Source: an uncultured Roseburia sp. (GTDB lineage Bacteria > Bacillota > Clostridia > Lachnospirales > Lachnospiraceae). From it: a stretch of 29,487 bases of DNA. The notes beneath the pieces were generated by a model that was given only the letters and a program-made list of their open reading frames with translations, was not told where the DNA came from and did not search any database. Made by a program: the position numbers and the translations under genes. Below are positions 7,784 to 29,487 of the stretch, in pieces. The DNA lies in the NCBI GenBank assembly GCA_934307185.1, contig CAKRCJ010000002.1, forward strand, positions 1 through 29,487, written 5' to 3'. Position 1 is the first letter of the stretch. Each line of letters opens with the position of its first letter.

Positions 7784-7785
7784 TA

Positions 7786-8400: not shown

Positions 8401-8414
8401 TGAAAGGATAAGAA

Positions 8415-11309: not shown

Positions 11310-11789
11310 ATGAATGAAAAATTTGACAGTTCAAAATATAATTTAAGCTTACGTAGGGCAAAGCTGGAGGATGCCGAATTTTTATTTATACTTAGAAACG
11401 ATAAAACAGTTCGGGAAAATTCTTTTCAGACCAAAGTAATTGCGTATGAACAGCATTTAAACTGGTATAAAAACAAAATGCAGGATGAAAAAACACAAAT
11501 TTACATTTTACAGATAAATAAACAAAATATAGGACAGGTCCGGGTAGATGAGGAAAACTCGGATTTGGAAATTTCCTATGCGATCTGCCAGGAATATCGG
11601 GGGAAAGGGTATGCAAAATGGATGTTAGGTACTTTGGAGAAGGAGTTGAGGAAAGTGAAAAACAACATTGGAAAATGTTTGGTAGGAGATGTGAAGAAAG
11701 ATAATATCAGTTCGCAAAAAGTGTTTCTTTCACTTGGGTATATTGAGTCAAAGATGACCTATGGATTCCAATATAGAAAAAGAATATAG
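11310..11789 (+). CDS. pseH: GNAT N-acetyltransferase, PseH-like
   Basis: Probably the third pathway step: acetyl-CoA-dependent N4 acetylation of UDP-4-amino-4,6-dideoxy-beta-L-AltNAc. The 159-residue protein is a single GNAT domain with the acetyl-CoA loop EYRGKGYAKWM (R97-G98-K99-G100-Y101-A102) and a C-terminal NISSQKVFLSLGY strand-helix. The N-terminal FILRNDKTVRENSF and HLNWYKNKM segments are typical of acetyltransferases in nonulosonic acid clusters. It is the only such gene in the window, so assignment to PseH is by elimination as well as motif. The ATG at 11310 has only a weak ribosome site (TAGG) and lies just after a strong terminator, so its transcription may depend on read-through. 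Confidence 0.8.
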   Translation: MNEKFDSSKYNLSLRRAKLEDAEFLFILRNDKTVRENSFQTKVIAYEQHLNWYKNKMQDEKTQIYILQINKQNIGQVRVDEENSDLEISYAICQEYRGKGYAKWMLGTLEKELRKVKNNIGKCLVGDVKKDNISSQKVFLSLGYIESKMTYGFQYRKRI

Positions 11790-11837: not shown

Positions 11838-13739
11838 TTAATTCCAAAGATTACAAATTGAATATTTGGAGGTAAGGCGCTTTGACATAAAGCCTTTTGA
11901 GGCGTCGGAACAATTGGAAGTAAAATATTCAATTGCATCCAGAATGTCAGCACAAGAGTTTCCTACATTAGAAAAAACACGCGAGCCTTTTTCACGAACA
12001 TAAGAAAAAGATTCAGGAAATGAAATTAGTTGTTCCATATCTTTTCTAAGGTTTGCTTTTGTAGATTTAATAACATAATCCATTGGAACAACGGCATAGC
12101 GGCTTGGTGTGGTGTCAGGAATGAGCCAATCGGTTACAGCAATACTTGTTTTTCCAAACATTAAGGCTTCTGCCATGACGCTGGATTCATCGGAAACAAC
12201 ATAATCACACATTGCAAGTGCAGTCATAATGCTTTCTTTGGGTTCAATATAATATACGTTATCATACTTTCCTTCATGTAAGGCACGCATATTCTTTATA
12301 TTTTCAACAATATTAGAATATTTTTCAGGCCAATGGGCTTGTTTAATGAGTAAGTTTACATTTAAAGAGGAAAGAGCTTTGATAAAATCATCCTCTTTTC
12401 CATCATTTTCCCACGAAGGTGCGTATAAAATAGAAACATCATATTTTAAATGAAACTTATTACGTAATTCTTCAACATGTTGTAAAAGTTCTGGAGAAGA
12501 AACCAGGTCGCTTTTCGGATATCCGAGTTCATAAGTACCACACCGTGGATTAGCATAGTATTGGCAGGAACATTGCCTCCACAAATCAGCCCAAAAGTCA
12601 CCGGGAATAATACCGATATCAAATTTATTCCAACGTTCTAATTCCCATAGATTAGGCCAGCGATTATGTCCTTGTGCTAAATCGTGGAGAAGAATTACAG
12701 AAAATTTTGAGTTTTCAGGGTGACATACATGCTGGCAATAGATACCAATTTCTGCTGGGGCAAGGGTGTTATCCGTAAAAGTAATTTTGTAACCGCGTGC
12801 TGCAGCTTCATCAGCAATTGGTTTTAAATTATAATATTCGCCCATGTCAGTGTAAAAAAAAGTAATATCTTTTTTGCAGGAAATAAAATTCTCTGTTTTG
12901 GTAAAATCACATGCTGTTACAGGAGAAATATCAAAAAAATGCTGGCTTTCATAGTCTGATAAAAGTTTTTGATAATCAGTGTTTAATTCTTCATCAATTA
13001 AAGTATTTGTCAGAATGGATGATGCCAAAGGGAGATAAGTATATACAATATTTGCAGAATAAAGTAATTGGTATAAAAGTGCAGTACACTGCATGGAATG
13101 AGGAATGCATATATTAAATAAACGTAGTTTCTTTGCATAATCAGCTGATATTAGTAATGTAGATAAATCGCCATATAAGTTTACAGTGTTTGCAAGACTA
13201 TAAGTTAACAGCTGTTTTCCTTCAAAAATATGGTTGTCAAGCATGTCCTGATAGACAAAGTCAGGGTGGGAGATAATTACGTCATTTTCATCAATAAAAT
13301 TGCGTGTGCAGATAACTCCATTAGTAGTTGGAGCTTCTTTAAAGAAAGAAATAAGCAGTGAAATACGATTTTTCTCATACTTATGCTTACAGTCAAAAAA
13401 ACAAATGTATTCGCTTTCTATAGATGTAATACATTGGCAAAATTCTTCTAGCAGATTATCGGCGGAGAGGCAAATAACATTAAGATTATTGTAATTCTGG
13501 AAAGCTTTCACATTTTCAAGACAGGTTTGCGTATCTTCAGAAGATTGTTTGATGTATATAAGCGTTACGCTTGGTCCGGCTGATACGGTGAGAGAATTCA
13601 TGCATGCCATATAAAAGTCGTCATACCCGAAAGTAGACTTATATATTTTAAGACATTCATGCGTGGTGTTATAATCTTTTGCAGAGAGACATTGCTCTAT
13701 TAACTGCATCATTTGAACTTTTGGGGATAAATTATTCAT
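11838..13739 (-). CDS. Two-domain protein: GT-A-like plus glycerophosphotransferase-like
   Basis: A 633-residue protein. The N-terminal part (about 50-290) resembles a GT-A glycosyltransferase fold: VTLIYIKQS, a Rossmann-like LNVICLSAD, and ICFFDCKHKY at the place of a DxD loop. The C-terminal part (about 295-600) resembles the CDP-glycerol glycerophosphotransferase (TagF) fold: ILLHDLAQGH, a GYPKSDLV stretch, ILYAPSWENDG (from 437), LLIKQ (463-467) and DYVVSDESSVMAEAL. The His-Pro of the TagF 'RxHP' motif is missing at LLIKQ. It is a tandem paralogue of the gene upstream, 69 bases away, and ends with nearly the same KRLTSKYSIC-LWN tail. The ATG lies 34 bases from the only good ribosome site, with a small hairpin between. 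Substrate unknown. Confidence 0.82.
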   Translation of the reverse strand: MNNLSPKVQMMQLIEQCLSAKDYNTTHECLKIYKSTFGYDDFYMACMNSLTVSAGPSVTLIYIKQSSEDTQTCLENVKAFQNYNNLNVICLSADNLLEEFCQCITSIESEYICFFDCKHKYEKNRISLLISFFKEAPTTNGVICTRNFIDENDVIISHPDFVYQDMLDNHIFEGKQLLTYSLANTVNLYGDLSTLLISADYAKKLRLFNICIPHSMQCTALLYQLLYSANIVYTYLPLASSILTNTLIDEELNTDYQKLLSDYESQHFFDISPVTACDFTKTENFISCKKDITFFYTDMGEYYNLKPIADEAAARGYKITFTDNTLAPAEIGIYCQHVCHPENSKFSVILLHDLAQGHNRWPNLWELERWNKFDIGIIPGDFWADLWRQCSCQYYANPRCGTYELGYPKSDLVSSPELLQHVEELRNKFHLKYDVSILYAPSWENDGKEDDFIKALSSLNVNLLIKQAHWPEKYSNIVENIKNMRALHEGKYDNVYYIEPKESIMTALAMCDYVVSDESSVMAEALMFGKTSIAVTDWLIPDTTPSRYAVVPMDYVIKSTKANLRKDMEQLISFPESFSYVREKGSRVFSNVGNSCADILDAIEYFTSNCSDASKGFMSKRLTSKYSICNLWN

Positions 13740-13779
13740 GTTTTTATATACTAAGTGTAAAACTTAGTCCATACCTTCC
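13740..13779 (-). promoter_or_regulatory. Leader with distant ribosome site and bridging hairpin
   Basis: On the minus strand GGAAGG (complement of 13774-13779) lies 34 bases before the ATG. Between them is a 6-bp hairpin ACTAAG/CTTAGT (complement of 13763-13768 with 13750-13755, 7-base loop). The same layout precedes the upstream paralogue. Folding would shorten the effective distance to about 15 bases. Confidence 0.45.
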
Positions 13780-13808
13780 TATACAAAATTTAAAATAAGC
13801 ACATTTAC

Positions 13809-15698
13809 TTAATTCCATAAACTACAAATGGAATATTTAGAAGTTAATCTTTTTTCTAGAAAATTTGTCGAGATATTAGGATTATCTGATGTAAAGTATT
13901 CAATTGCATCCATAATATCGGAACAGCAATTTTCAGCATTTGAAAAAAGGTTCTTTCCCTTCTGAAAGACAGTAGAATAACTTTCAGGTGAAGATAAATA
14001 TTTTTCGATATCCGTGCGCAATGCTTTTTTAGTGGATAAAATGGCATAATCTGCAGGAATAGCATATCGGCTTGGAGTAGTATCGGGGATAAGCCAGTCC
14101 GTAACGGCAATGCTCGCTTTGCCAAACATTAAGGCTTCAGCCATAACATTTGATTCATCAGAAACAACAAGATCGCATATTGCAAGTGCGGTCATAATAC
14201 TTTCTTCCGGTTCAATGTAAAATACATTGTCATATTTTCCTTCGTGAAGAAGACGCATTTGGTGTATGTTTTCTGCAATGTTGTTATATACATTGGAACA
14301 GTTTGGCTGCTTAATAAGCAAGTTGACATTTAAAGAAGAAAGAGCTTGGATAAAGTCATCTTCTTTCCCATCATTTTCCCATGATGGAGCATAAAGTATG
14401 GAAATATCATATTTTAAATTTAGCTTTTGACGTAGTGCATGGGCGCATTGTGCAAGTTCTGGAGAAGCTACCAAACTACTTTTGGGATAACCGAGTTCAT
14501 AAGTCCCGCATCTTGGATTGACATAATATTGGCATGCACACTGACTCCAGAGATTAGTCCAAAAAGTACCTGGAACAATACCAATATCAAATTTATTCCA
14601 TGGTTCATATTCCCAGATATTTGGTTTATGCCCCTGATTTAAATCATGTAATAAAATTACAGAAAACTTTGAGTTTTCAGGATGGCATACATGCTGACAG
14701 TAAACACCAATTTCTGCAGGAGTAAAAATATCGTTAGTGAAAGTTACTTTATAACCGCGGGAAGCAGCTTCATCAGCAATTGGTTTTAGATTATAGTATT
14801 CGCCCATATCGGTATATATAAAAGTAATATCTTTTTTACACATAACATAATGCTGTGTTTGGGTAAAATTGGTTAGGTTAGCTGGTCTTTGCGGCAAAAG
14901 AGGGTACGGTGTATTACTAAAATATTTTTGAAAATTATTCAGTAATTTGGTATCATTATAAGCAGGAGTCAGGATAGTTGATACCAAAGGGACATATGTA
15001 TATAAAATTTTAGCAGAATAAAGCAACTCATATAATAGGGATGGTTGCTGCATTGAATTAAGGGTGACTGAACCAGAAAAAGATAGCTTTTTAACATAGT
15101 CTGTTGATAGTAACAGAGTAGATAAATTTCCATATATGTTTATATTATTTGTGATACTATAGGCTAATAACTGATTTCCATCAAAGGTATGCTCATCCAG
15201 AACTTCTTGATAAATCATCTGAGGATGTGCAAGGATTTTGCCTTTGGAGTCAATAAAATTTCGACTGCAAATAATTCCATCAATGCAGGAATTATCTGTA
15301 AACAAAGAAAGAAGAACAGAAATACGATTTTCATTATATTTATGATTACAATCACAAAAGCAGAGATAATGGCTGGAGGTAGTGACAATATAGTTGAAAA
15401 AGTCTTCCGATAAATTATCCGCTGATAAACATATAATCTCAAGATTGCGATAATTGTTGGATAGTTTCAGGTCTTTAAGACAGTCGGATTCATTTTCAGA
15501 TGCTTGTTTGATATAAATAAGGCTTACTAACGGTTCTGGTGTTGGCGAAAAAGAAGATAGACAAGTGATATAAAAATCATCATAGCCAAAAGATGATTTG
15601 TAAATTTGCAGGCATTCAAGGGCAGTATGATAATCGTTAGCCAAAATGCATTGTTGGGTTAATTGCATCATTTGTTCTTTGATAGATGAGTCACTCAT
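13809..15698 (-). CDS. Two-domain GT-A-like plus glycerophosphotransferase-like protein, paralogue
   Basis: A 629-residue paralogue of the following gene with the same two-part architecture. The GT-A-like half has VSLIYIKQAS, LEIICLSAD and LCFCDCNHKY. The glycerophosphotransferase-like half has GVYCQHVCHPENSKF, ILLHDLNQGH, ILYAPSWENDG (from 434), LLIKQPN and DLVVSDESNVMAEAL. The C-terminal halves of the two paralogues are far more alike than the N-terminal halves, suggesting a conserved reaction with divergent acceptor or donor use, or gene conversion. The TagF-type His-Pro is again absent. It is the first gene of the minus operon, behind a good promoter at 15763-15791. The nearest good Shine-Dalgarno is 37 bases before the ATG, with no alternative in-frame start between them. 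Confidence 0.82.
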   Translation of the reverse strand: MSDSSIKEQMMQLTQQCILANDYHTALECLQIYKSSFGYDDFYITCLSSFSPTPEPLVSLIYIKQASENESDCLKDLKLSNNYRNLEIICLSADNLSEDFFNYIVTTSSHYLCFCDCNHKYNENRISVLLSLFTDNSCIDGIICSRNFIDSKGKILAHPQMIYQEVLDEHTFDGNQLLAYSITNNINIYGNLSTLLLSTDYVKKLSFSGSVTLNSMQQPSLLYELLYSAKILYTYVPLVSTILTPAYNDTKLLNNFQKYFSNTPYPLLPQRPANLTNFTQTQHYVMCKKDITFIYTDMGEYYNLKPIADEAASRGYKVTFTNDIFTPAEIGVYCQHVCHPENSKFSVILLHDLNQGHKPNIWEYEPWNKFDIGIVPGTFWTNLWSQCACQYYVNPRCGTYELGYPKSSLVASPELAQCAHALRQKLNLKYDISILYAPSWENDGKEDDFIQALSSLNVNLLIKQPNCSNVYNNIAENIHQMRLLHEGKYDNVFYIEPEESIMTALAICDLVVSDESNVMAEALMFGKASIAVTDWLIPDTTPSRYAIPADYAILSTKKALRTDIEKYLSSPESYSTVFQKGKNLFSNAENCCSDIMDAIEYFTSDNPNISTNFLEKRLTSKYSICSLWN

Positions 15699-15850: not shown

Positions 15851-17563
15851 ATGACAGAGGAACAAAAACAAATTGTAGACACAATGAAAGAAATATCAGA
15901 AATGATTGAGTCTGATCAGTTGCCAATAAACCAGTGTCCGTTTTCGGATTTACGAACCGTGTATTATTGTGCATTATGTTATCCGAATGATATAACACGT
16001 GCAGAAAGTATGGCGGCAGACTATTGCGAACTTTTACAAACGATAGCATCTATGGGAGCAAAGGAAGAATTATGCCAGATGTTAAAATTGATGATTAAAA
16101 GTATGGAATATGAGTATGAAAAGAGAAATTATTATGAAGATCAGAACATACTTTTAAAGAAACAGCTCGAAGATGAAAAAAATAATCATTCTATTTATGA
16201 TGAAATTGTAGAATATTATAAAACAGACAGAATTAATGAAAAATTTTTAAATGAGCATACTTACCAATCACTTATTTGTGTGAAGGAGAAGGGAAATATA
16301 GATTTATTTAAAAAGATTTCAAGTGAAGTATATAAAAAGAAATTAGAACAATTGAAAGAAAAAAAAATAAAAAAAATTGTATTCTTTTTAAAAGATAGTG
16401 CAGAGTGGAGCTGTGAGGAATTATATCAAAAATTCAGTCAAACAGCGGAATATGAGGTCTCTATTGTGGTAGCACCATTTTATGCCGGAACAGATAAAAC
16501 TATTCAGGATACATATATGGATACTATAAAGTATTTTGAAAAAAGAAATTTTCACACGATTGGAATGTATGATATTTGCCAGAACAGATTTAAAAGTTGG
16601 AAAGAAATTGGTGTGCCAGATATTGTATTTCATTTAAACCCTCATTACACTGCCTTTCGGGAGAGCAGTGATATCTGTAATTTTCCATTAAGTATTTTGA
16701 ATGTATATATACCCTATGGAATGATGATATATGGAAATGTCGAGCAGCAATTTAACCAATTGTCGCATATGCTTTATTGGAAAATTTTTTGTGAATCACC
16801 GTTGCATAAAATCATGACTTCAAAGTATGCAGATATAGGAGATTACAATGTTATTAGCAGTGGCTATGTGAAAATGGATTCATTTTTAAAAGTACATATA
16901 AATAGTGAAAGAAAAATATGGAAAATACCTGTAGGTGTCGATAATAAAAAAATAAAAAAAATTATATATGCACCACACTGGTCAGTAAAGGATGCATTTA
17001 CAGGATTTGGAAATTTTGACAAAATATATATGCAAATTTATGAATATGCAAAGAATAACACAAAAACAACATCATGGGTATTTAGACCGCATCCAATGCT
17101 CCGTGCGGGAGCAGTCCAGCAGGGAGTTTTTAAATCAGAGGAAGAATACGATAATTACCTTGGAATGTGGAACGAGTTACCAAATGCGCAAGTGATAGAA
17201 AATGGAATGTATGTAGACATTTTTGAAACGTCTGATGCAATGATTTTAGATAGTGTTTCATTTTTAGCAGAATATTTATATATGCATAAGCCAATGCTTT
17301 TTTTGACAAGAGACCGTAATACATTTAATGATTTTGGAAAAGAATTGGTAAAAGTATTATACAAGGTAGATGGTGGAGATTTTGATGGAATCAGACGATT
17401 TATTGAGACGGTTGTAATGAGAAATCAGGATACAATGCAAAAACAAAGAGAGGATTTTTTTGAAAAATATCTGGATTATGAAAAAAGAAATGGAATGTTA
17501 GCAAGTGAATATGTGTATCAGTATATTGATAAGCAAGTTCATACACAGGGAGAAAATGAATGA
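15851..17563 (+). CDS. CDP-glycerol glycerophosphotransferase-like protein
   Basis: A 570-residue protein whose C-terminal half (about 170-550) has the TagF/Glyphos_transf fold: VYIPYGMMIYG, SGYVKMDSFL, IIYAPHWS (371-378), a FRPHP motif (411-415) and LDSVSFLAEYLYMHKPMLFL (D467-S468). These His/Pro motifs are those that bind the CDP-activated donor in teichoic acid polymerases. Members transfer a phosphoalcohol from a CDP-donor, making a phosphodiester. No CDP-glycerol synthase (TagD) is nearby, but a nucleotidyltransferase is, so the donor may be another CDP-linked small molecule. The N-terminal 150 residues are helical and unrecognised. Strong AGGAGG; first gene of the long plus operon, overlapping the next by four bases (ATGA). 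Confidence 0.87.
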   Translation: MTEEQKQIVDTMKEISEMIESDQLPINQCPFSDLRTVYYCALCYPNDITRAESMAADYCELLQTIASMGAKEELCQMLKLMIKSMEYEYEKRNYYEDQNILLKKQLEDEKNNHSIYDEIVEYYKTDRINEKFLNEHTYQSLICVKEKGNIDLFKKISSEVYKKKLEQLKEKKIKKIVFFLKDSAEWSCEELYQKFSQTAEYEVSIVVAPFYAGTDKTIQDTYMDTIKYFEKRNFHTIGMYDICQNRFKSWKEIGVPDIVFHLNPHYTAFRESSDICNFPLSILNVYIPYGMMIYGNVEQQFNQLSHMLYWKIFCESPLHKIMTSKYADIGDYNVISSGYVKMDSFLKVHINSERKIWKIPVGVDNKKIKKIIYAPHWSVKDAFTGFGNFDKIYMQIYEYAKNNTKTTSWVFRPHPMLRAGAVQQGVFKSEEEYDNYLGMWNELPNAQVIENGMYVDIFETSDAMILDSVSFLAEYLYMHKPMLFLTRDRNTFNDFGKELVKVLYKVDGGDFDGIRRFIETVVMRNQDTMQKQREDFFEKYLDYEKRNGMLASEYVYQYIDKQVHTQGENE

Positions 17564-18696
17564 GAGTACTTTTTTTTCAATGGTATTCCTTTATGAACAA
17601 GGGAATAGAAAGGGCTTTAAAAAAACTTAATATAGAATATCGTGTTTTTTTCTGGCAATTTGATGATTGGGAAAAAGATGAAATATTTTTGCAAAGATTT
17701 AAGGAAGAGTTAGAAAAAGAAAATTATACAGTTGTTCTTTCCGTAAACTATGCTCCACTTGTTTCTGAAATTTGTGAACAAAAGAATGTCAGATATCTGG
17801 CTTGGATATATGATTCCCCGTTACATATCAGGGATTTATCGTCATTGAAGAATAAATGTAATTATCTTTTCTTTTTTGACAGCGGACAGGCAGAGGAGTA
17901 TAAGAAAATTGGGGCAAATGCAATACATATGCCATTGGCAGTAGACACAGATATTTTTGGGGAAACAATAAAAAGTAATAATAAAAGATACCAGACAGAT
18001 GTATCATTAGTTGGTAAGCTTTATCAGACGGAATATGCAGATTACATAGGATGTTTAAGTGAGTACGCTAAGGGGTATTTAGAAGGGATTATTAATTCAC
18101 AGTCAAAAATCTATGGTGGATATTTAATACCGGAATTAATTACCCAGGAATTGTTAGACAGAATTAATAAGGATTATAAAGAGAAAAAGATTGATTTTAA
18201 AATGGGGTATAGGGAACTGGAATTTATGCTTGCCTGCGAGACAACAGGGAGGGAAAGGTACACAGCGTTAGCATTACTTTCAAATCATTTTAAGGTTGAT
18301 TTATATTCTACGGATGAAGAAAAAAATCTACCAAATGTTTCGTTTAAGGGATATGCAGATTACTATACACAGATGCCACAGATTTTTTATGGGAGTAAAA
18401 TTAATTTAAATATTTCATTAAAAACGATTCGAACAGGGATACCTCTTAGAGTGATTGATATTATGGGTTGTGACGGCTTTGTGATAACAAACTATCAGGA
18501 GGAAATTGCAGAGTATTTTAAGATAGATGAGGAGTGTGTGGTGTATGACAATCTAGAGGACTTGTACGAGAAAACCAGATACTATTTAGAACATGATTCG
18601 GTGCGTGAAAAGATAGCAGACGCAGGATATCAACGGGTAAGCAGGGATTTTACTTTTGAGGACAGATTGCAGCGAATGTTTCAAAAGATAAAATAA
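17560..18696 (+). CDS. CgeB-like glycosyltransferase
   Basis: A 378-residue member of the same family as the genes at 3045-5403. It has YTVVLSVNYAPLVSE and YLAWIYDSPL in the N-terminal half, KINLNISLKTIRTG, GIPLRVIDIMGCDGFVITNY (from residue 293), VVYDNLEDLYEK and a terminal REKIADAGYQRV helix. The start overlaps the previous stop (ATGA), so translation is coupled to the glycerophosphotransferase-like gene, hinting that the two act on the same glycan. It is soluble, with no signal peptide. Donor unknown. Confidence 0.88.
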   Translation: MRVLFFQWYSFMNKGIERALKKLNIEYRVFFWQFDDWEKDEIFLQRFKEELEKENYTVVLSVNYAPLVSEICEQKNVRYLAWIYDSPLHIRDLSSLKNKCNYLFFFDSGQAEEYKKIGANAIHMPLAVDTDIFGETIKSNNKRYQTDVSLVGKLYQTEYADYIGCLSEYAKGYLEGIINSQSKIYGGYLIPELITQELLDRINKDYKEKKIDFKMGYRELEFMLACETTGRERYTALALLSNHFKVDLYSTDEEKNLPNVSFKGYADYYTQMPQIFYGSKINLNISLKTIRTGIPLRVIDIMGCDGFVITNYQEEIAEYFKIDEECVVYDNLEDLYEKTRYYLEHDSVREKIADAGYQRVSRDFTFEDRLQRMFQKIK

Positions 18697-18711
18697 AGGA
18701 GATAGGATAAA

Positions 18712-20415
18712 ATGTACGATGAACTGATAAAAAAATTAAATCCAAAGCCTGAATTTAATTTAAAATGGTATAACGATGTAGATTTGTATTCAGATGGAGA
18801 TGTTGAGAATAAAATAATTCAATTAATTGCAGAAAACGAGCCGGAACATTATACAGATGCTATTTATAATAATTTTAGCTGGCCTACATATTATCATTTA
18901 ATACATTTGCGAAAGAATATTTTAAATTGGTATGATTTTAAAAAGGATAGTGATGTTTTGGAAATTGGATGCGGTATGGGAGCTGTAACAAGTGTATTGT
19001 GCGACAATTGCAAAACGGTCACAGCGGTAGAATTGTCAAAAAGAAGGGCAACAGCAACATTGCTACGTTGCAGGGAAAAGGAAAATTTAGAAATTATTGT
19101 AGGTAATTTGAACGATATTCAATTTGATAAAAAATTTGATTATATTACATTAATAGGTGTGTTTGAATATCAGGGATGTTATACCGATTCAGATAATCCG
19201 TATAAAGATTTTTTAATTAAGATAAAGCAGTTATTAAAGCCGGATGGAAAGCTACTGATTGCAATTGAAAATCAGTATGGACTCAAATATTGGTGTGGAG
19301 CGTTAGAGGATCATACAGGACTTCCTTTTGATGGAATGAATCAGTATAAGTTTACAAAGCGTGGAGTAAGAACTTTTTCGAAAAAAACGCTGGATAAGAT
19401 AATAAAAGAGAGTGGATTTAAAAATACGTACTTTTACTATCCACTTCCTGACTATAAGCTTCCAACAGTTGTATATTCGCAGGATTATTTGCCTCAGAAT
19501 GAAAATATGCAGAATTTACAGTGTTATTATGTCCCAGATAAGTCTACACTAATTGCAGATGAAATGGAATTGTATAAAGACATTATAGATAATGGAGTGT
19601 TTGAATTTTTTGCAAATTCATTTCTGGTAGAGTGTTCAGACAGTGAAGATATTGGAAAAATCACTTTTGCAACTATGGGAAGTGAACGACAGGAAAAGTA
19701 TCGTATAGCAACCAGATTTGTTGATAATAAAGTTGTTGAAAAAATAGCATTAACAAATTTGTGCAGAGAAGTACATTTAAAGCAGATAACAAAAAATGAA
19801 CAGGCATTAAAGCGATATGGAAGAGATGTTTTGGAAAGTAAATGGGATGATACGGGAAAAATTGTCTCTGATTTTGTGAAAAAACCATTGCTGGAAGATA
19901 AAGTATTGGAAGCATGGGGCGATAATAATATTGAAAGAGTATTTGAAGTATTTGATATTTTATATGAGGAAATATTAAATTCATCGGAATATGCTGAGTG
20001 GCAGAATAATATCTTGTACAGTTTAGGGGCAGATATAGCAGAAGATGAATATGCATATGGACCGATTCTTCGTGTGGCATATTTAGATATGACATTAAGA
20101 AATGCATTTTACGAAGCTGGAAGTATATGCTGGTTTGATCAGGAATGGATTTTAGAAGATGTGCCGGCAAAGTTTGTTTTATGCAGGGCAATAGCGCAAT
20201 TTTATTATGCATATCCTGATTTTGAAAAGTTTTGTTCAATGCAGGTTTTATTGGATAAATATGAGATAACAAGTGTTTATGGGGAATTCCAAATTTTAGA
20301 ACATATGTTTACAGAATTAATATTTGATGAAAAACAGTTAATAGAAAGTGCGGCATTTCGTGGAGGAGATATGGAAACGAGTATTTCTAATATTAAAAAG
20401 CTGTTGTCACGGTAA
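18712..20415 (+). CDS. SAM methyltransferase fused to a kinase-like domain
   Basis: A 567-residue protein. The N-terminal part (about 50-240) is a class I SAM-dependent methyltransferase: VLEIGCGMGAVTSVL (motif I, E84-G90), VTAVELSKRR (motif II), YITLIGVFEY (motif IV) and LLKPDGKLLIAIEN (motif V-VI). From about 310 a second domain follows that I read as similar to the aminoglycoside/choline kinase fold: a lysine in VVEKIAL (K344), glutamates E353/E363 in the next helix, YLDMTLRN (D459, N464) resembling a catalytic loop, and WFDQEW (D476, E478) resembling the metal-binding DxE/DFG site. The kinase reading is pattern recognition, not proven. AAGGAG upstream; within the long operon. It could methylate and phosphorylate a glycan substituent or its precursor. 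Confidence 0.8.
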   Translation: MYDELIKKLNPKPEFNLKWYNDVDLYSDGDVENKIIQLIAENEPEHYTDAIYNNFSWPTYYHLIHLRKNILNWYDFKKDSDVLEIGCGMGAVTSVLCDNCKTVTAVELSKRRATATLLRCREKENLEIIVGNLNDIQFDKKFDYITLIGVFEYQGCYTDSDNPYKDFLIKIKQLLKPDGKLLIAIENQYGLKYWCGALEDHTGLPFDGMNQYKFTKRGVRTFSKKTLDKIIKESGFKNTYFYYPLPDYKLPTVVYSQDYLPQNENMQNLQCYYVPDKSTLIADEMELYKDIIDNGVFEFFANSFLVECSDSEDIGKITFATMGSERQEKYRIATRFVDNKVVEKIALTNLCREVHLKQITKNEQALKRYGRDVLESKWDDTGKIVSDFVKKPLLEDKVLEAWGDNNIERVFEVFDILYEEILNSSEYAEWQNNILYSLGADIAEDEYAYGPILRVAYLDMTLRNAFYEAGSICWFDQEWILEDVPAKFVLCRAIAQFYYAYPDFEKFCSMQVLLDKYEITSVYGEFQILEHMFTELIFDEKQLIESAAFRGGDMETSISNIKKLLSR

Positions 20416-20422
20416 ACCGTGA
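20407..20422 (+). other. Small hairpin overlapping a stop codon
   Basis: TCACGG (20407-20412), loop TAAA, CCGTGA (20417-20422). The stop TAA of the preceding gene lies in the loop. No T run follows, so it is not an intrinsic terminator; it could stabilise or process the mRNA, or be chance. Confidence 0.35.
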
Positions 20423-20466
20423 TTAGAAAAGAAAAATGGAAAAGTAGAAAACGATTGGAATAGATA

Positions 20467-21204
20467 ATGAGAATAAAAGATAAAGTAGAAAATATTGATT
20501 ACAGCGAAACAAAACTTTTTTTTAAAAAAAGAGCAGAAAAATTTCAGGAAAGTAATCCTTACTCAGTTACAATGTATCAGGATAATAATGCTGAGATAGT
20601 GAAACAGCGAAACAAAAAAGAAATTGAAAAGTTGTTGCCTAAATTACATATAGAAAAAAAATCGAAAGTATTGGATGTTGCGTGTGGAATAGGAAGATGG
20701 GCAGATGCGCTGACAGATGATATTACAGAATACTGTGGTTTGGATTTCAGTGAAGAATTAATAGATATTGCAAATAAAAGAAATCATAAAAGTAAATTTT
20801 CTTATTATGTATGTAGTTCCAATGAAATCGCTCAAGTATTAGAAAAAAATGGTAAAGATTTATATAATAGAATTTTGATTGTTGGTATTTTAATGTATTT
20901 AAATGATGTGGATATGATAAGTACATTAGAACAAATACAAAGAAAATGTGAGGAAAAGACAATTATTTGTATTAGGGAACCTATTGCTATAGAGGATCGG
21001 CTTACTTTGAAAGATTTTTTTTCAGAAGAGTTGAACGATAATTATAATGCTATCTATAGAACAAGAGAAGAATTGTTGGAAAGTATAAATAATATATTCA
21101 TAAGCAGAGGATTTGAGATAAAAGAACAGGGTTTTTTATTTGATGATGCAGCACTTAATAACAGAAAAGAAACAACTCAGTATTACTACATTTTAGAAAG
21201 GTAA
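20467..21204 (+). CDS. Class I SAM-dependent methyltransferase
   Basis: A 245-residue methyltransferase with motif I VLDVACGIGRWADAL (V68-G76), motif II YCGLDFSEELI, RILIVGILMYLND as motif IV and KTIICIREP as motif V. The substrate is not evident. It starts 51 bases after the previous gene with only a weak ribosome site, the loosest join in this part of the operon. The following phosphatase and nucleotidyltransferase genes suggest it modifies a small metabolite that is then activated, or the glycan itself. In the C. difficile type A flagellin locus a methyl group is added to a phospho-threonine substituent, a useful comparison, though homology here is not established. Confidence 0.87.
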   Translation: MRIKDKVENIDYSETKLFFKKRAEKFQESNPYSVTMYQDNNAEIVKQRNKKEIEKLLPKLHIEKKSKVLDVACGIGRWADALTDDITEYCGLDFSEELIDIANKRNHKSKFSYYVCSSNEIAQVLEKNGKDLYNRILIVGILMYLNDVDMISTLEQIQRKCEEKTIICIREPIAIEDRLTLKDFFSEELNDNYNAIYRTREELLESINNIFISRGFEIKEQGFLFDDAALNNRKETTQYYYILER

Positions 21205-21212
21205 TAGAGAAA

Positions 21213-21815
21213 ATGAGCAGATATATTTTTCTATTCGATCTGGATTCTACGATAACAAAACAGGAAATATTGCCAACTATTTCAAAGAAATTAGGAATAT
21301 ATAAAAAAATGACTGAACTTACAGAGAGTACAATGAGTGGCGAGATACCGTTTAAGCAGAGTTTTTTGCAAAGAGTGGAGTTGTTGAAAGATATTCCGGT
21401 AAGTGAAGTAAGTGATATGGTAAGTAAAATTCAATTAAACAATTATTTGGTGGAGTTTATACAAAACAATCGAGAGAGATGCTATATTGTAACAGGAAAT
21501 TTAGATGTATGGATTGATGGATTAATAAAAAAAATAGGAATGGAGAGGAATACCTTTTGCTCTAAAGCAATTGTGAAAAATGATTGTATTGAAGATGTGT
21601 TTAATATTGTGGATAAAAATGCAGTTATTAGTCAAATGGTATTGCCATTTGTTGCTATTGGTGATGGAAATAATGATGCAGAAATGATAGAAGCAGCAGA
21701 AATCGGTATTGGATATGGTGGAGTGCGGGAAATTGCACCTGCAGTGCTTGCATGTGCCACGCATGCAATCTATGAAGAAGAAAAATTAGTTGAATTTTTA
21801 GAAAGACTTTTATAA
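21213..21815 (+). CDS. HAD-IB phosphatase (SerB-like)
   Basis: A 200-residue haloacid dehalogenase phosphatase. Motif I is FLFDLDSTIT (D9 nucleophile, D11 acid/base), motif II IVTGNLD, and motif IV AIGDGNNDAEM (D151, D155), so all catalytic residues are present. The short alpha-helical cap after motif I is like that of phosphoserine phosphatase. Between methyltransferase and nucleotidyltransferase genes it probably acts on a phosphorylated intermediate of a glycan substituent. General serine synthesis is unlikely because no other serine gene is near. The start follows GAAAGGT; the next gene begins 12 bases after its stop. Confidence 0.88.
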   Translation: MSRYIFLFDLDSTITKQEILPTISKKLGIYKKMTELTESTMSGEIPFKQSFLQRVELLKDIPVSEVSDMVSKIQLNNYLVEFIQNNRERCYIVTGNLDVWIDGLIKKIGMERNTFCSKAIVKNDCIEDVFNIVDKNAVISQMVLPFVAIGDGNNDAEMIEAAEIGIGYGGVREIAPAVLACATHAIYEEEKLVEFLERLL

Positions 21816-21827
21816 AGGGGGAGAAAA

Positions 21828-22475
21828 ATGCCAGTTTCGAGGACAGTAATTATTAGTTGTGCAGGCATGGGAAATCGCTTAGGTCTTGGAACCACGAAAG
21901 CATTGGTCGAAGTAGAAGGCAAACCACTTATTATGTATCATTTAGAAAAACTGAAAGATGAGAAAGATATTCGGATAGTAGTTGGATATCAGGCGGAAAA
22001 AGTAATAGAGGCAGTTAGAATGTATCGTAAAGATATTGTATTTGTATTTAATCATAATTATAGACAAACCGGCACAGGGGCAAGTGTAACGTTAGCTGCT
22101 CAATATGCAAATGAATATATTTTGTCTTTAGATGGCGATTTATTAATACACCCGGATGACATGAAGAAGATATTGGAATGTGAACATGAATTTGTGAGTG
22201 GTGGAGTTCCAGATACCGATGATCCATGGATGCTTCAGACTTATAAAGATGGTGAGAAAGAATTTGTGAGTGCATTTTCAAAGAATGTAGGTAATTATGA
22301 ATGGAATGGAATCACACAAATAAAAAGTGCCAAAGTGAAAAATGGACAAGGGCATGTGTTTCAATTAATAGAACCGTATTTGCCATTACCATTTATGGAA
22401 ATTAGAACACGGGAAGTTGACACGATAAATGACTATGAACGGGCAGTGAAATGGGTGCGCAATGGATATAAATAA
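21828..22475 (+). CDS. Nucleotidyltransferase (LicC-like NTP transferase)
   Basis: A 215-residue GT-A-type nucleotidyltransferase that would join a phosphorylated small molecule or sugar to NMP. It has the NTP-binding loop IISCAGMGNRLG with K24 in TTKALVEVEGKPL, the metal-binding LSLDGDLLI (D102-D104) and EVDTINDYERA near the C-terminus. Its length and opening are closer to CTP:phosphocholine cytidylyltransferase LicC than to long hexose-1-phosphate enzymes, although LicA/LicB/LicD are absent. With glycerophosphotransferase-like genes in the cluster it is the best candidate for making the CDP-linked donor they would use. Strong GGGGGAG ribosome site. Confidence 0.87.
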   Translation: MPVSRTVIISCAGMGNRLGLGTTKALVEVEGKPLIMYHLEKLKDEKDIRIVVGYQAEKVIEAVRMYRKDIVFVFNHNYRQTGTGASVTLAAQYANEYILSLDGDLLIHPDDMKKILECEHEFVSGGVPDTDDPWMLQTYKDGEKEFVSAFSKNVGNYEWNGITQIKSAKVKNGQGHVFQLIEPYLPLPFMEIRTREVDTINDYERAVKWVRNGYK

Positions 22476-22496: not shown

Positions 22497-22991
22497 ATGG
22501 ATGATGCTATAACAGATAAAGATTTGATTTATTTTTACTTTGAAATGATAAAAAAAAGTGGGGCATTAAGTGTATTAGATATAGGGATGTTCTTAAAAAG
22601 AATAGGTGCTGTATCCAGACAAGCTATGGGGTGTGAGATTGATGCCAGAGTACAGCTTTGCGGAATTGATTTGTTTCCCGATGTGCAACTGGCTGTTTAT
22701 GACAGAATTTATGATATGATATTTCCTCAAAAATTATTTATAAATGAGATTGTAGATAAAAATAAAAGTATAAATTTTGATATAGCAGTGTTACTTGGCA
22801 TAGAAAACTATGAAGAAGAATTTATGCAGAAAATGTGGAAGTATTCATTGGATAATGCAGCTGCAATCATGACAGAACAGAGAATGGCGGATATGCAGGT
22901 GAAAAAAGGTATGATTACAGGCTATTATCCTGTGTCGACTGGAGAGCGGACATATGCATGGATACCAACAATGGAATTGAGAGGAAATTAG
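22497..22991 (+). CDS. Hypothetical protein, possible degenerate methyltransferase fold
   Basis: An unrecognised 164-residue protein. The order of hydrophobic strands looks like a class I methyltransferase (Rossmann) core: LSVLDIG (24-30), VQLCGIDLF (52-60), FDIAVLLGIENY (94-105) and AAAIMTEQ. Yet the glycine-rich SAM loop after VLDIG is replaced by MFLKRIG, and the protein is shorter than active enzymes. It may be a non-catalytic partner of one of the nearby methyltransferases, or a decayed enzyme. The gene has a good AGAGGG site and lies 3 bases before the next start, so it looks expressed and maintained. Confidence 0.7.
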   Translation: MDDAITDKDLIYFYFEMIKKSGALSVLDIGMFLKRIGAVSRQAMGCEIDARVQLCGIDLFPDVQLAVYDRIYDMIFPQKLFINEIVDKNKSINFDIAVLLGIENYEEEFMQKMWKYSLDNAAAIMTEQRMADMQVKKGMITGYYPVSTGERTYAWIPTMELRGN

Positions 22992-23705: not shown

Positions 23706-24416
23706 ATGGAAAAAGCGATTGCAATCATTACAGCACGGGGAGGTAGTAAGCGGATTCCTCGTAAAAATATTAAAGAATTTTGCGGAAAGCCAATTATTGC
23801 ATATTCAATTGAAGCTGCGAAAAAGAGTGGCAGGTTTTCAGAAATCATGGTATCAACTGATAGTGAGGAGATTGCGGAGATATCAAGAAATTATGGAGCG
23901 AATGTTCCGTTTCTTAGGAGTAAAAAAACATCGGATGATTATGCAACAACTGCAGATGTTTTGATGGAAGTGCTTGATGGCTATAAGCAGCGGGAAAGAG
24001 AATTTGAATATACTTGCTGCATTTATCCAACGGCACCGTTTGTCACGGAAGATAAGTTGATACGTGCCATGGAAATTATGGAAAGAAAAAATCCGGTAGC
24101 GGTTATGCCGGTGGTGCAATTTTCATATCCACCACAAAGATGTTACGTGGTGGATGAAAATGAACGGATTCATTTTAAATTCCCACAATATGCTACAGCA
24201 AGATCACAGGATTTAGAAAAGCAATATCATGATGCGGGACAGTTTTATGTATATCAGACGAAAGATTATTTGAAAAATAAAGGAATGGTGTGGGAAAATA
24301 TTATGCCAATCATTGTTTCTGAATTAGAGGTTCAGGACATAGATAATGAAACGGACTGGGAGCTTGCAGAAATAAAGTACAAGATAATGTGTGAAAAAAA
24401 TAAAGGAATTTTATAG
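23706..24416 (+). CDS. pseF: Pseudaminic acid cytidylyltransferase PseF
   Basis: Last step of the pathway: activation of pseudaminic acid with CTP to CMP-Pse, the donor for the Maf glycosyltransferase. The 236-residue protein has the CMP-nonulosonate synthetase loop ITARGGSKRIPRKNI (R11-P18), IMVSTDSEEIAE, FLRSKKTSDDYA, CIYPTAPF and a C-terminal VQDIDNETDWELAE. The length and RSKKTSDDYATT favour PseF over NeuA or LegF. The gene has GAGGGTG upstream and is directly followed by pseI (1-base gap). Confidence 0.93.
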   Translation: MEKAIAIITARGGSKRIPRKNIKEFCGKPIIAYSIEAAKKSGRFSEIMVSTDSEEIAEISRNYGANVPFLRSKKTSDDYATTADVLMEVLDGYKQREREFEYTCCIYPTAPFVTEDKLIRAMEIMERKNPVAVMPVVQFSYPPQRCYVVDENERIHFKFPQYATARSQDLEKQYHDAGQFYVYQTKDYLKNKGMVWENIMPIIVSELEVQDIDNETDWELAEIKYKIMCEKNKGIL

Positions 24417-24417
24417 A

Positions 24418-25452
24418 ATGATACAGTTTAGGGAAAAAATACAAAATGGTGTGTATGTAATTGCAGAGATGTCTGCAAATCATGCAGGGAAAATAGAAAA
24501 TGCATTTAAAATTATTGAAGAAGCAGCAAAAGCAGGTGCAGATTGTGTAAAGATCCAGACGTACACAGCGGACACACTGACAATCGACTGTGCTGATGAT
24601 GCTTATAGGCTTCATGGCGGTCTGTGGGATGGATATAATTATTATCAATTGTACAAACAGGCATATACACCATGGGAATGGCAGCAAGCCTTGAAGGACA
24701 AATGTGAGGAGGTTGGAGTAGATTTTTTATCTACTCCTTTTGACAAAACAGCAGTAGATTTTTTGGAAGAACTTGGAGTTGAATTTTATAAGATAGCGTC
24801 TTTTGAATTGGTAGATATTCCATTGATAGAATACGTCGCCAGTAAGGGAAAGCCAATTATTATGTCCTGTGGAATGGGAAGTGAACAGGAGATAAAAGAG
24901 GCATTAGATGCATGTCACAGACAGAAAAATTATAATGTTGCGTTATTAAAATGTTGTAGTCAGTATCCGGCACAATATGAGGATATGAATGTTTCGGTTA
25001 TACCCGATATGAAAAAGCGGTTTGGTGTACCAGTAGGATTATCGGATCATTCATTGGGGTCTTTGGCAGATGTAGTAGCTGTGTCATTGGGCGCACAGAT
25101 TATTGAGAAGCATGTATGCCTGAGCAGGCAAATAGATAATCCGGATGCAGGTTTTTCTATGGAATTAAGTGAGTTTGCACAGATGGTCAAAGATGTTAGA
25201 AATGCTTATATTATAAAAGGAAAACCAACTTATGAATTGACGGAGCATGAAAAGAATAGTTTGATTTACCGTCGTTCTCTTGTGGCTGTGAAACCAATTG
25301 CGAAAGGAGAAGCTTTTACAGAGGAAAATGTTAGAAGCATCCGACCGGCAATTGGAATTAAACCGAAATATTATTACGAATTATTAAAGAAAACAGCGAA
25401 GCAGGAATATCATTTTGGCGAGCCGATTTCCATAAATGAAATAAGTGAATAA
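24418..25452 (+). CDS. pseI: Pseudaminic acid synthase PseI (NeuB family)
   Basis: Condenses 2,4-diacetamido-2,4,6-trideoxy-L-altrose with phosphoenolpyruvate to give pseudaminic acid. The 344-residue protein has the NeuB barrel opening VIAEMSANHAGK (E17-K25), ADCVKIQTYTADT, LSTPFDKTAVDFL, FYKIASFELVD, GLSDHSLG and EKHVCLSR, then a C-terminal SAF (antifreeze-like) domain from about residue 283 (RRSLVAVKPIAKGEAF). SAN-H in place of the NeuB GVNHNG and the overall motif set fit PseI. The ATG at 24418 is 11 bases from AAGGA. A GTG at 24391 would overlap pseF and lacks a ribosome site. Confidence 0.93.
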   Translation: MIQFREKIQNGVYVIAEMSANHAGKIENAFKIIEEAAKAGADCVKIQTYTADTLTIDCADDAYRLHGGLWDGYNYYQLYKQAYTPWEWQQALKDKCEEVGVDFLSTPFDKTAVDFLEELGVEFYKIASFELVDIPLIEYVASKGKPIIMSCGMGSEQEIKEALDACHRQKNYNVALLKCCSQYPAQYEDMNVSVIPDMKKRFGVPVGLSDHSLGSLADVVAVSLGAQIIEKHVCLSRQIDNPDAGFSMELSEFAQMVKDVRNAYIIKGKPTYELTEHEKNSLIYRRSLVAVKPIAKGEAFTEENVRSIRPAIGIKPKYYYELLKKTAKQEYHFGEPISINEISE

Positions 25453-25472
25453 AAAATTTTATAGAAGGAAGA

Positions 25473-26489
25473 ATGATGATAGGGTTTCGTGTGGATGCGA
25501 ATGAAGTAATCGCAACAGGACATTTAATGCGTTGCATCAGCATTGCTTTAGAGTGTAAAAAACGCGGGCAGCAATGTATTTTTTTTATGGCTGAAGACAA
25601 AGAGACAGAGCGGTTAAGGAAAGCAGGATTTCAATATTATATATTAAATAGTGACTGGAAAAATCTGGACAATGAAATTTCTGAGTTTCAAAAAATATTA
25701 GAAAATTATAAGTTAAATTATTTAGTAGTGGACTCATATCAGGCGACAGCGGGATATTTGGCAGCATTGGAGGAAATTCAGCCTGTATGTTATATTGATG
25801 ATTTGAAGAGAGAAGTATATGATGTTTCAGTTGTAATTCATTATATAAGTCCGTTTAAAAATGATAGCTATGAAGAAATGTATAGAAATACACATACTGA
25901 ATTGTTAAATAATATGAAATATGCCCCTCTCAGACCTGAGTTTCATTATAAAAAAGAGAAAGTTATCCGAGAAAAGAGTATTCTTATAACTACAGGGGGG
26001 ACAGATTTTTATAATGTTGCAGGAAAAGTTGCGGCATTGTGTCAAAACAGTATGCAGATAAAAAGCTATAAAATACATATTATTGTTGGGAGTATGAATC
26101 AGTACGAAACGGAATTAGAACAATTAGCGGAGAAATATACGAACATTATTTTACATAAAAATATAACAAACATGAGTGATTATATGAGATTATGTGAGGT
26201 GGCGGTATCGGCTGGCGGAACAACATTGTTAGAGTTATGTGCATGCAAAATACCAACAGTCTGTTTTTCTTTTGCAGATAATCAGGTAAAGTTTGCAAAT
26301 GATATGGGGAAAATTGGTGCAGTAAAATATGTCGGAGATGCGCGGAAAATTGAAGATATAGAAAGTAAGATAGTTAAGCAATTGTTAATATTTATAAAGA
26401 ATGAAGAAGAAAGAAAAAAATATGCAGATTGTATGGGAAAACTAATTGATGGACATGGAACGGAAAGAATAGCTGATGTATTATGTTAG
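25473..26489 (+). CDS. pseG: UDP-6-deoxy-AltdiNAc hydrolase PseG
   Basis: Removes UDP from UDP-2,4-diacetamido-2,4,6-trideoxy-beta-L-altrose, with inversion, giving the sugar used by PseI. The 338-residue GT-B-fold hydrolase has FRVDANEVIATGHLMRC, which puts His at residue 17, the catalytic base in C. jejuni PseG. Further motifs are VVDSYQ, YIDDLKRE, ILITTGGTDFYNVAGK and the C-terminal VAVSAGGTTLLELCACKIP. Presence of this enzyme, and not a NeuC-type hydrolysing epimerase, is good evidence for a pseudaminic over a legionaminic pathway. Two ATG codons in tandem (25473, 25476) follow GAAGGA. Confidence 0.94.
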   Translation: MMIGFRVDANEVIATGHLMRCISIALECKKRGQQCIFFMAEDKETERLRKAGFQYYILNSDWKNLDNEISEFQKILENYKLNYLVVDSYQATAGYLAALEEIQPVCYIDDLKREVYDVSVVIHYISPFKNDSYEEMYRNTHTELLNNMKYAPLRPEFHYKKEKVIREKSILITTGGTDFYNVAGKVAALCQNSMQIKSYKIHIIVGSMNQYETELEQLAEKYTNIILHKNITNMSDYMRLCEVAVSAGGTTLLELCACKIPTVCFSFADNQVKFANDMGKIGAVKYVGDARKIEDIESKIVKQLLIFIKNEEERKKYADCMGKLIDGHGTERIADVLC

Positions 26490-28861: not shown

Positions 28862-28936
28862 TTGTAAATCATATCAGAAACAAATGGATATAGATGTAAA
28901 AAGGTTGCTTATATTTTGAACATAGGAGGAAAAATA

Positions 28937-29487
28937 ATGATACCATACGGAAGACAGACAATTGAAGAGGATGATATACAGGCAGTTGTAGATGTTTTAA
29001 GATCGGATTACCTTACAACAGGTCCAAAGATTGCGGAATTTGAAAAAATGGTTGCAGATTATGTCGGGGCGAAATATGCAGTGGCAATTTCAAACGGAAC
29101 ATCGGCACTTCATGCGGCGTGTTTTGCAGCAGGGATTAAGCCGAGGGATGAAGTAATTACAACCCCGTTAACGTTTGCAGCTTCAGCAAACTGTGTTTTA
29201 TATTGTGGCGGGACGCCGGTATTTGCTGATGTCAATCCAAAAACCTATAATATAGACCCGGAAGATATCCGCAGAAAAATTACCAATAAGACGAAAGCAA
29301 TCATTGCAGTTCATCTTGCAGGACAGCCTTGCGATATGGACGAGATTCATAAAATAGCAAAAGAACATGATTTGATTGTCATTGAGGATGGCGCACATGC
29401 ACTTGGTTCTGTATATAAAGGGAAAAAAGTAGGAACTTTGTCGGATATGACAACGTTCAGTTTCCACCCGGTAAAACCGATTACAAC
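28937..29487 (+). CDS. pseC: UDP-4-amino-sugar transaminase PseC (3' truncated)
   Basis: Second pathway step: PLP-dependent amination of the 4-keto sugar made by PseB, giving UDP-4-amino-4,6-dideoxy-beta-L-AltNAc. Only the first 183 codons are in the window (the family is about 370-390 residues). The start MIPYGRQTIEEDDI after AGGAGG is typical PseC, followed by ISNGTSALHAAC, TTPLTFAASANCVLYCGGTPVFAD, IEDGAHALGS (D151, which contacts the PLP nitrogen) and FHPVKPIT, where K180 is the Schiff-base lysine. The reading frame is open to the edge. It is separated from pseB by 22 kb and may start a further operon beyond the window. Confidence 0.94.
   Translation, partial: MIPYGRQTIEEDDIQAVVDVLRSDYLTTGPKIAEFEKMVADYVGAKYAVAISNGTSALHAACFAAGIKPRDEVITTPLTFAASANCVLYCGGTPVFADVNPKTYNIDPEDIRRKITNKTKAIIAVHLAGQPCDMDEIHKIAKEHDLIVIEDGAHALGSVYKGKKVGTLSDMTTFSFHPVKPIT

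What the first reader, a model, noticed from the sequence alone, without database searches (positions are those of the whole stretch)
15851..22475. A possible phosphodiester-linked, methylated substituent pathway inside a pseudaminic acid island
Glycerophosphotransferase-like, CgeB glycosyltransferase, methyltransferase/kinase-like fusion, methyltransferase, SerB-like phosphatase and LicC-like nucleotidyltransferase genes are consecutive and co-directional. Together they could make a CDP-activated, methylated small molecule and attach it by phosphodiester to a glycan. As I recall it, the C. difficile type A flagellin locus (around CD0240-CD0244) uses a comparable phosphatase, nucleotidyltransferase, methyltransferase and glycerophosphotransferase set to make phospho-N-methyl-threonine on O-GlcNAc. 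Here such a set lies within a full amidinated-Pse locus, a combination I do not know to be described. The substituent cannot be read from the sequence.
Basis: partly seen in the sequence, partly recalled or inferred. Interest (0 to 1): 0.72.

Follow-up and report, generated by a model that had tools for sequence, protein, structure and literature searches.

The report
Phospho-amino-acid flagellin decoration gene cassette
A gut bacterium carries, inside the gene island that makes a sialic-acid-like sugar for its flagella, the same four-gene kit that Clostridioides difficile uses to hang a methylated amino acid on its flagella through a phosphate, so its flagella probably bear both kinds of decoration.

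Summary
The six genes at 15851-22475 are real, consecutive and co-directional. Four (GPT, MT245, HAD, NTP) match the C. difficile Type A flagellin set. Against a near-C. difficile locus (L114), HAD (49.5%), NTP (46%) and MT245 (39%) are reciprocal best hits; GPT is linked by L080 and by profile-profile comparison (probability 98.2). The CD0243 counterpart is MT245, not the methyltransferase fusion; the fusion and CgeB are extra.

The window's NTP falls in a clade of 18, all with MT245. Of 80 related loci, 28 carry MT245 and 20 of those a GPT. Three other Lachnospiraceae have PseI 17-24 kb from NTP, two of them with flagellin too: the combination recurs.

Best reading: HAD and NTP make a CDP-amino acid (threonine-like), MT245 N-methylates it, GPT attaches it by phosphodiester to a Maf/Pse-initiated flagellin glycan. 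A racemase-family gene inside sister cassettes and conserved phosphoserine-phosphatase residues in HAD favour an amino acid. Which one, and the acceptor, are unknown. Seven of seven genomes with HAD-less cassettes lack HAD altogether. New variant of a known kind.

The parts
15851..17563 (+). GPT: TagF/TarL-like phosphotransferase, counterpart of CD0244; predicted to transfer the phospho-amino acid from CDP to the glycan
17560..18696 (+). CgeB-type glycosyltransferase, between GPT and the rest of the core; may build the acceptor glycan
   Evidence: PF13524 + PF12996; 4-base overlap with GPT; not in the Type A-like comparators
18712..20415 (+). 567-aa methyltransferase fusion with a possibly kinase-like C-terminal half; not the CD0243 counterpart
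   Evidence: MT Pfam hits within 60-239; 3325 hits among 8000 candidates; model pLDDT 75; C-terminal half without Pfam or significant PDB sequence match
20467..21204 (+). MT245: N-methyltransferase, counterpart of CD0243
   Evidence: 39% over 245 aa to L114, reciprocal best hit; RLTL....S..L...Y...YRT..E invariant in 14 of 14 aligned sequences
21213..21815 (+). HAD/SerB-like phosphatase or phosphotransferase, counterpart of CD0241
   Evidence: 49.5% over 200 aa to L114, reciprocal best hit; DxDxT and the residues aligned with E20 and R56 of M. jannaschii phosphoserine phosphatase invariant in 7 of 7 aligned sequences
21828..22475 (+). NTP: LicC-like cytidylyltransferase, counterpart of CD0242
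   Evidence: 46% over 212 aa to L114, reciprocal best hit; G13, G15, R17, K24, D102-G-D104, D198-T199 invariant in 9 of 9 aligned sequences; tree
22497..22991 (+). orf164, no Pfam or NCBIfam match; a distant match sits near DUF4422 in L026 and L041
22995..23672 (+). DUF4422 protein, also found in several related loci
   Evidence: PF14393 E 2e-81
18..812 (+). flagellin, the presumed target
   Evidence: PF00669 + PF00700
1111..3039 (+). Maf/PseD-type flagellin nonulosonate transferase
   Evidence: PF01973; NF050051 PseD 139 bits over most of its length, far below the cut-off of 670
5460..9173 (+). PseB, WbuX/PseA-type amidotransferase, HisH and HisF2-like: Pse start and acetamidino group
11310..11789 (+). 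GNAT acetyltransferase, PseH-like
   Evidence: PF13302; no NCBIfam match at 1e-20
23706..26489 (+). PseF, PseI, PseG
   Evidence: NCBIfam over cut-off
28916..29485 (+). PseC, cut by the window end
   Evidence: TIGR03588 match to its first half
11838..15698 (-). two tandem PF04464 proteins (64% identical), possible further phosphotransferases

Best explanation
The window holds a Type A-like cassette (GPT, MT245, HAD, NTP) inside an acetamidino-pseudaminic acid flagellin island of a Roseburia-type Lachnospiraceae. Inferred mechanism: HAD supplies an O-phospho amino acid (threonine, or a near relative), NTP couples it to CTP to give a CDP-amino acid, MT245 N-methylates it (before or after activation), and GPT transfers the phospho-N-methyl amino acid from CDP to a hydroxyl of a flagellin glycan by a phosphodiester. 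The glycan starts with a Pse-type sugar placed by the Maf protein and is probably extended by the CgeB/GT proteins. Shown here: gene identities, orthology to the Clostridioides-type set, recurrence, flagellar linkage. Inferred: substrate, order of steps, acceptor.
For: Reciprocal best hits for HAD, NTP, MT245 and flagellin with L114, L080 and L092, and for GPT with L080; profile match of GPTs. L114 flagellin differs by one residue from each of two C. difficile 630 glycopeptides and by two from a third (peptides in PMC4441256 passages; L114), so L114 stands in for CD0239-CD0244, whose product was solved by NMR (PMC4441256 passages) and for which disruption of any of cd0241-cd0244 prevented the complete glycan (PMC10714395, sections 6-7). 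NTP tree: window with 17 others, all with MT245, support 100/96. Flagellin in the fetched stretch of 7 of 28 MT245 loci versus 2 of 52 others (loci not independent). Amino-acid substrate: HAD residues aligned with E20/R56 of M. jannaschii PSP invariant in 7 of 7 (their role in binding serine is recalled); racemase-profile hits in 16 of 80 loci, 5 of them in the window's NTP clade, PF01177 confirmed in the three scanned. Recurrence with PseI 17-24 kb from NTP in G783, G787, G791.
Against: No chemistry. Lachnospiraceae and Peptostreptococcaceae NTPs are separate clades with loci of other content between them, so a change of substrate is possible. GPT is the weakest link: no pairwise hit to the L114 GPT, and its fold ties with UDP-GlcNAc 2-epimerases. 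HAD is absent (E <= 1e-10) from 7 of 7 genomes checked that keep MT245 and NTP, one of them with a broken NTP, so HAD cannot be the only source of the phospho compound everywhere. The window's flagellin is 21 kb from the NTP gene, and no window ORF matched the L114 GT2-TPR profile at 1e-20; the GT2 ORF at 27740-28756 matches it only over 97 aa (E 1.6e-5). The nearest held genome (G001) and 61 of 62 genomes of its genus lack the NTP at E <= 1e-15.
Confidence: 0.68

Rival explanations
1. Kennedy-type decoration: NTP makes CDP-choline or a CDP-(N-methyl)ethanolamine, with MT245 (or the fusion) acting as an N-methyltransferase of phosphoethanolamine, and GPT adds phosphocholine-like groups to the glycan or a capsule.
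For: Best solved relative of NTP by sequence is LicC, CTP:phosphocholine cytidylyltransferase. Some distant HAD-NTP pairs sit with LicD and with cytidylyltransferase-aminotransferase fusions.
Against: The main LicC match covers residues 7-106 only and is far weaker than the match to the L114 NTP (38 versus 210 bits). 15 of 17 loci with the aminotransferase fusion have no MT245 and group apart in the NTP tree, weakly supported (61/55). HAD keeps phosphoserine-phosphatase residues, and some cassettes include a racemase-family gene. No choline kinase among the Pfam hits of the window.
Confidence: 0.12
2. The fusion protein is a WbdD-like phosphorylating and phosphate-methylating cap enzyme, so phosphate and methyl groups end the glycan as a methyl phosphate, next to or instead of a phospho-amino acid.
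For: Methyltransferase half followed by a half with LDM...N and WFDQEW motifs, invariant in the aligned relatives, which I read as kinase-like; same domain order as WbdD (PMC3482155, passages).
Against: No PDB or Pfam sequence match of the second half to any kinase; the structure search was filled by the methyltransferase half, so the fold of the second half is untested. The fusion is present in few of the related cassettes.
Confidence: 0.1
3. The cassette decorates a capsule or teichoic-type polymer and lies in a flagellin island only by rearrangement.
For: PF04464 is named after the teichoic acid glycerophosphotransferase; 71 of 80 loci show no flagellin within the stretch fetched; the window's flagellin is 21 kb from NTP.
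Against: In L080, L092, L114 and L115 the set follows flagellin with one GT gene between; in L033 flagellin directly follows NTP, and in L031, L034, L035 it lies within 8 kb; the window island has a Maf-type protein.
Confidence: 0.1

Closest known systems
C. difficile Type A flagellin glycan locus CD0240-CD0244
   Same: Four of the five enzymes (HAD, NTP, MT, GPT) are orthologous by reciprocal best hit or profile, via the near-C. difficile locus L114 and relatives; linked to flagellin
   Different: Gene order differs (GPT first, then MT-HAD-NTP); CgeB and a methyltransferase fusion are inserted; no clear CD0240-like initiating GT2-TPR; lies in an acetamidino-Pse island with a Maf protein, so the core sugar is probably not GlcNAc
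P. aeruginosa PAO1 b-type flagellin locus PA1088-PA1091
   Same: Same predicted enzyme types and chemistry class, N,N-dimethylthreonine on a deoxyhexose by phosphodiester (PMC11833859, abstract and sections 2 and 7 seen)
   Different: There the phosphotransferase is fused to a glycosyltransferase (PA1091); sequences not compared here
Aeromonas piscicola AH-3 polar flagellin glycan
   Same: Pse-rooted flagellin glycan with phosphate and methyl groups (PMC7874193, passages seen)
   Different: Phosphate and methyl sit on HexNAc of a heptasaccharide; the genes named in the passages seen are not a HAD-NTP-GPT set
LicC/LicD phosphocholine pathways
   Same: Cytidylyltransferase family and CDP-donor logic
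   Different: No choline kinase among the window's Pfam hits, weak partial match to LicC

Membership tests
Type A-like phospho-amino-acid cassette (the four-gene module) | CD0241-like HAD phosphatase | tested here: met
   49.5% over 200 aa, reciprocal best hit with the stand-in L114
Type A-like phospho-amino-acid cassette (the four-gene module) | CD0242-like nucleotidyltransferase | tested here: met
   46% over 212 aa, reciprocal best hit with L114
Type A-like phospho-amino-acid cassette (the four-gene module) | CD0243-like methyltransferase | tested here: met
   MT245, 39% over 245 aa, reciprocal best hit with L114, shared signature
Type A-like phospho-amino-acid cassette (the four-gene module) | CD0244-like phosphotransferase | tested here: met
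   Profile-profile prob 98.2; reciprocal best hit with L080 only; no pairwise hit with L114
C. difficile Type A locus in the strict sense | CD0240-like initiating GT2-TPR beside flagellin | tested here: not met
   No window ORF at 1e-20, only a 97-aa match of a GT2; a Maf-type protein instead. So filed as carrying the module, not as a Type A locus
C. difficile Type A locus in the strict sense | N-methylthreonine linked by phosphodiester to GlcNAc on flagellin | not testable with these tools
   Needs mass spectrometry or NMR
Acetamidino-pseudaminic acid flagellin island | PseB, C, H, G, I, F and an amidotransferase with flagellin | tested here: met
   PseB/F/I/G and WbuX over cut-off; PseC cut by the window end; PseH only as generic GNAT
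LicC phosphocholine cytidylyltransferase | Full-length match and choline-binding residues | tested here: inconclusive
   Main match covers residues 7-106 only; choline-binding residues not compared
WbdD-type kinase-methyltransferase (for the fusion gene) | Kinase domain after the methyltransferase domain | tested here: inconclusive
   No sequence match; fold of the C-terminal half not searched by itself

The most novel reading that the evidence does not exclude
Commensal Lachnospiraceae use an interchangeable phospho-amino-acid module on Pse-rooted flagellin glycans, in which the amino acid varies by strain: cassettes with a racemase gene would attach a D- or otherwise epimerised N-methyl amino acid, cassettes without HAD draw on another phospho compound, and the window's version also has a second phosphate/methyl route through the methyltransferase fusion. 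CDP-amino acids would then be a general class of donors.
Probability: 0.25. Interest if true: 0.72.

Novelty: new variant of a known kind. Interest (0 to 1): 0.55.

Why it matters
Roseburia-type bacteria are common, benign, motile gut bacteria whose flagellins are major immune antigens (recalled). If their flagella carry a phospho-N-methyl amino acid on a pseudaminic acid glycan, the Type A chemistry is not a peculiarity of two pathogens but a widespread surface chemistry. The homologues also give test material for open steps in the C. difficile model: what HAD really does (it is missing in some lineages), whether CDP-threonine exists, and when methylation happens.

Tried and rejected
The methyltransferase fusion as CD0243 counterpart: rejected, MT245 is the reciprocal best hit. 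NTP protein searches: 0 of 398 genomes over the phylum at E <= 1e-12 (no positive control among them), 7 of 250 in the family at 1e-15, 1 of 62 in the nearest genus at 1e-15: rare and patchy. A first NTP tree was discarded because fusion C-termini had been taken as NTPs for some loci; one search replaces it. In one search L081 was dropped (its frame stops at 128 aa) and rows were cut to 225 residues, which shortens only L044 and L078. The HAD count is not used: that profile had drifted onto NTP through fused ORFs; HAD absence rests. Many of the genomes there are draft or metagenome assemblies, so absence is not certain. The LicD label is loose and was confirmed by Pfam only in L019, L021 and L025. 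The racemase label was confirmed by Pfam in the three proteins scanned. GPT3 as a relative of GPT: profile comparison gave nothing (probability 0.6); the first 280 residues of GPT2 and GPT3 have no Pfam match. Papers searched for an earlier report in Lachnospiraceae or with Pse: none seen in the listings, which are capped; most subscription papers are not held. PMC13317340 (Pse in Clostridium): no word beginning with 'phospho' (passages seen). PMC5109656 (Geobacillus): passages seen, no such set named.
Full report
WHAT IS THERE. Six + strand ORFs lie at 15851-22475 with short gaps or overlaps. Family scans confirm a PF04464 phosphotransferase (GPT), a CgeB-type transferase, a methyltransferase fusion of 567 aa, a 245-aa methyltransferase (MT245), a SerB-like HAD phosphatase and a LicC-like nucleotidyltransferase (NTP). 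The island around them has flagellin, a Maf-type protein, PseB, a WbuX/PseA-type amidotransferase with HisH and HisF2-like proteins, a GNAT, PseF, PseI, PseG and the start of PseC. The window's own assembly is not held; named relatives of its proteins are Roseburia (R. intestinalis NTP 87%; a Roseburia MAG for the fusion, 71%), so Roseburia-type is an inference.

TEST AGAINST THE FLAGELLIN SET. C. difficile was not among the named loci returned. A search of 71 genomes of the family of Romboutsia lituseburensis gave 5 with the NTP. One, G716 (locus L114), has a 290-aa flagellin that differs by one residue from each of two glycopeptides reported for C. difficile 630 (LLDGTSTTIR for LLDGTSSTIR, DMVSSLDAALK for TMVSSLDAALK) and by two from a third (peptides from PMC4441256 passages; locus). 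Its order is flagellin, GT2-TPR, HAD, NTP, MT, GPT, that is CD0239-CD0244. R. lituseburensis (L092), Peptostreptococcaceae VA2 (L080) and G763 (L115, MT frame only 164 aa) show the same order. Window versus L114: HAD 49.5% over 200 aa, NTP 45.8% over 212, MT245 39% over 245, all reciprocal best hits. GPT has blastp hits to L080 (E 2e-11), L092 (4e-8) and L115 (6e-6), none to L114; only L080 is a reciprocal best hit. GPT profiles of the two families align with probability 98.2 and E 5e-14 over 411 columns. MT245 shares a specific signature with the L114 protein. So the CD0243 counterpart is MT245, and the fusion and CgeB are additions.

DISTRIBUTION. A genome-contig scan with an NTP alignment found 176 relatives and kept the best 80 loci. 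Of these 80, 28 carry MT245 and 20 of the 28 a GPT; by the gene table 16 of those 20 also have HAD. In 2014 no CD0244 orthologue had been found beside the other three in any other organism (PMC4441256, passage). Flagellin lies in the fetched stretch of 7 of 28 MT245 loci and 2 of 52 others (Fisher p 0.0075; loci not independent, many stretches cut by contig ends). In an NTP tree of 82 rows (one of 83 dropped) the window belongs to a clade of 18, support 100/96, all with MT245; the Peptostreptococcaceae form another clade (5 rows, 100/100); the 15 loci with a cytidylyltransferase-aminotransferase fusion but no MT245 group together with weak support (61/55). The label MT245 needs at least 5 changes over the starred branches of this tree, so gains, losses or transfers were several.

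THE PSE COMBINATION RECURS. PseI passes its cut-off in 10 of 23 cassette-bearing genomes examined. In three it is near NTP on the same contig: 24 kb away in G783, 21 kb in G787, 17 kb in G791. In G710 it is 3 Mb away and in the other six on another contig. The three loci show PseF, PseI and PseG (PseB and PseC too in G783 and G791), with flagellin in G787 and G791 but not in the 40 kb fetched of G783. G791 lacks HAD. So the arrangement is a repeated Lachnospiraceae design, though not the rule.

SUBSTRATE. Three lines favour an amino acid. First, orthology to a set whose product was solved by NMR as phospho-N-methyl-L-threonine on GlcNAc (PMC4441256, passages; pathway model in PMC10714395, sections 6 and 7; N,N-dimethylthreonine in P. 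aeruginosa, PMC11833859, sections 2 and 7). Second, HAD residues E18 and R54 are invariant in 7 of 7 aligned HADs and align with E20 and R56 of M. jannaschii phosphoserine phosphatase; that these bind the serine part is recalled. Third, a racemase-profile hit is present in 16 of 80 loci, 5 of them in the window's own NTP clade, where it stands next to HAD or NTP (in L027 it is split in two frames); the three proteins scanned are PF01177, Asp/Glu racemase family (L019, L033, L094). The NTP keeps nucleotidyltransferase residues. The window itself has no racemase gene in the table.

THE FUSION. Its family is large (3325 hits among 8000 scored candidates). The N-terminal half is a class I methyltransferase; the C-terminal half has LDM...N and WFDQEW motifs, invariant in the aligned relatives, that I read as kinase-like. 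This would make it resemble WbdD, which phosphorylates a glycan end and methylates the phosphate (PMC3482155, passages). No sequence search supports this, and the fold search was filled by the methyltransferase half.

VERDICT. A Type A-like cassette within an acetamidino-Pse island: a new variant of a known kind. The most likely product is a phospho-N-methyl amino acid on a Pse-initiated flagellin glycan; the chemistry needs mass spectrometry.

Noticed in passing
window 11838-15698 (-): Two tandem PF04464 proteins, 64% identical over their length, opposite in strand to the cassette; a related ORF (52% over 279 aa) lies at the edge of L120, in another cassette genome.
   Followed up: partly
L027, L031, L033, L036, L040, L050, L051, L062, L064, L074, L078, L093, L094, L097, L098, L099: A racemase-family gene recurs in HAD-NTP loci (16 of 80), in all but L062 within 2.5 kb of NTP on its strand, which hints at D- or epimerised amino acid substituents.
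   Followed up: partly
L038, L040, L048, L069, L076, L081, L090: Cassettes with MT245 and NTP whose genomes lack any HAD homologue at E <= 1e-10.
   Followed up: yes
L043, L045-L047, L052-L055, L057-L061, L065, L066: NTP loci with a cytidylyltransferase-aminotransferase fusion of about 600 aa (Pfam confirmed in L021 and L022), some with LicD: perhaps a phospho-amino acid decarboxylase making CDP-ethanolamine or CDP-aminopropanol (my inference).
   Followed up: partly
L020/L047 5965-7284: HAD and NTP read as one fused ORF of 439 aa.
   Followed up: no
L081 / G032 contig 57: MT245-NTP cassette whose NTP frame is interrupted by a stop: a decaying copy, or an assembly error.
   Followed up: no
L077, L079, L083, L085, L091, L103-L105: In other phyla a different, shorter methyltransferase (about 211-228 aa) lies near NTP (Pfam confirmed for L077 and L105), some with a GPT before HAD: the logic may be very widespread.
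   Followed up: partly
window 22497-22991: orf164 has no family match; a distant match (28-31%) occurs near DUF4422 in L026 and L041/L112.
   Followed up: no
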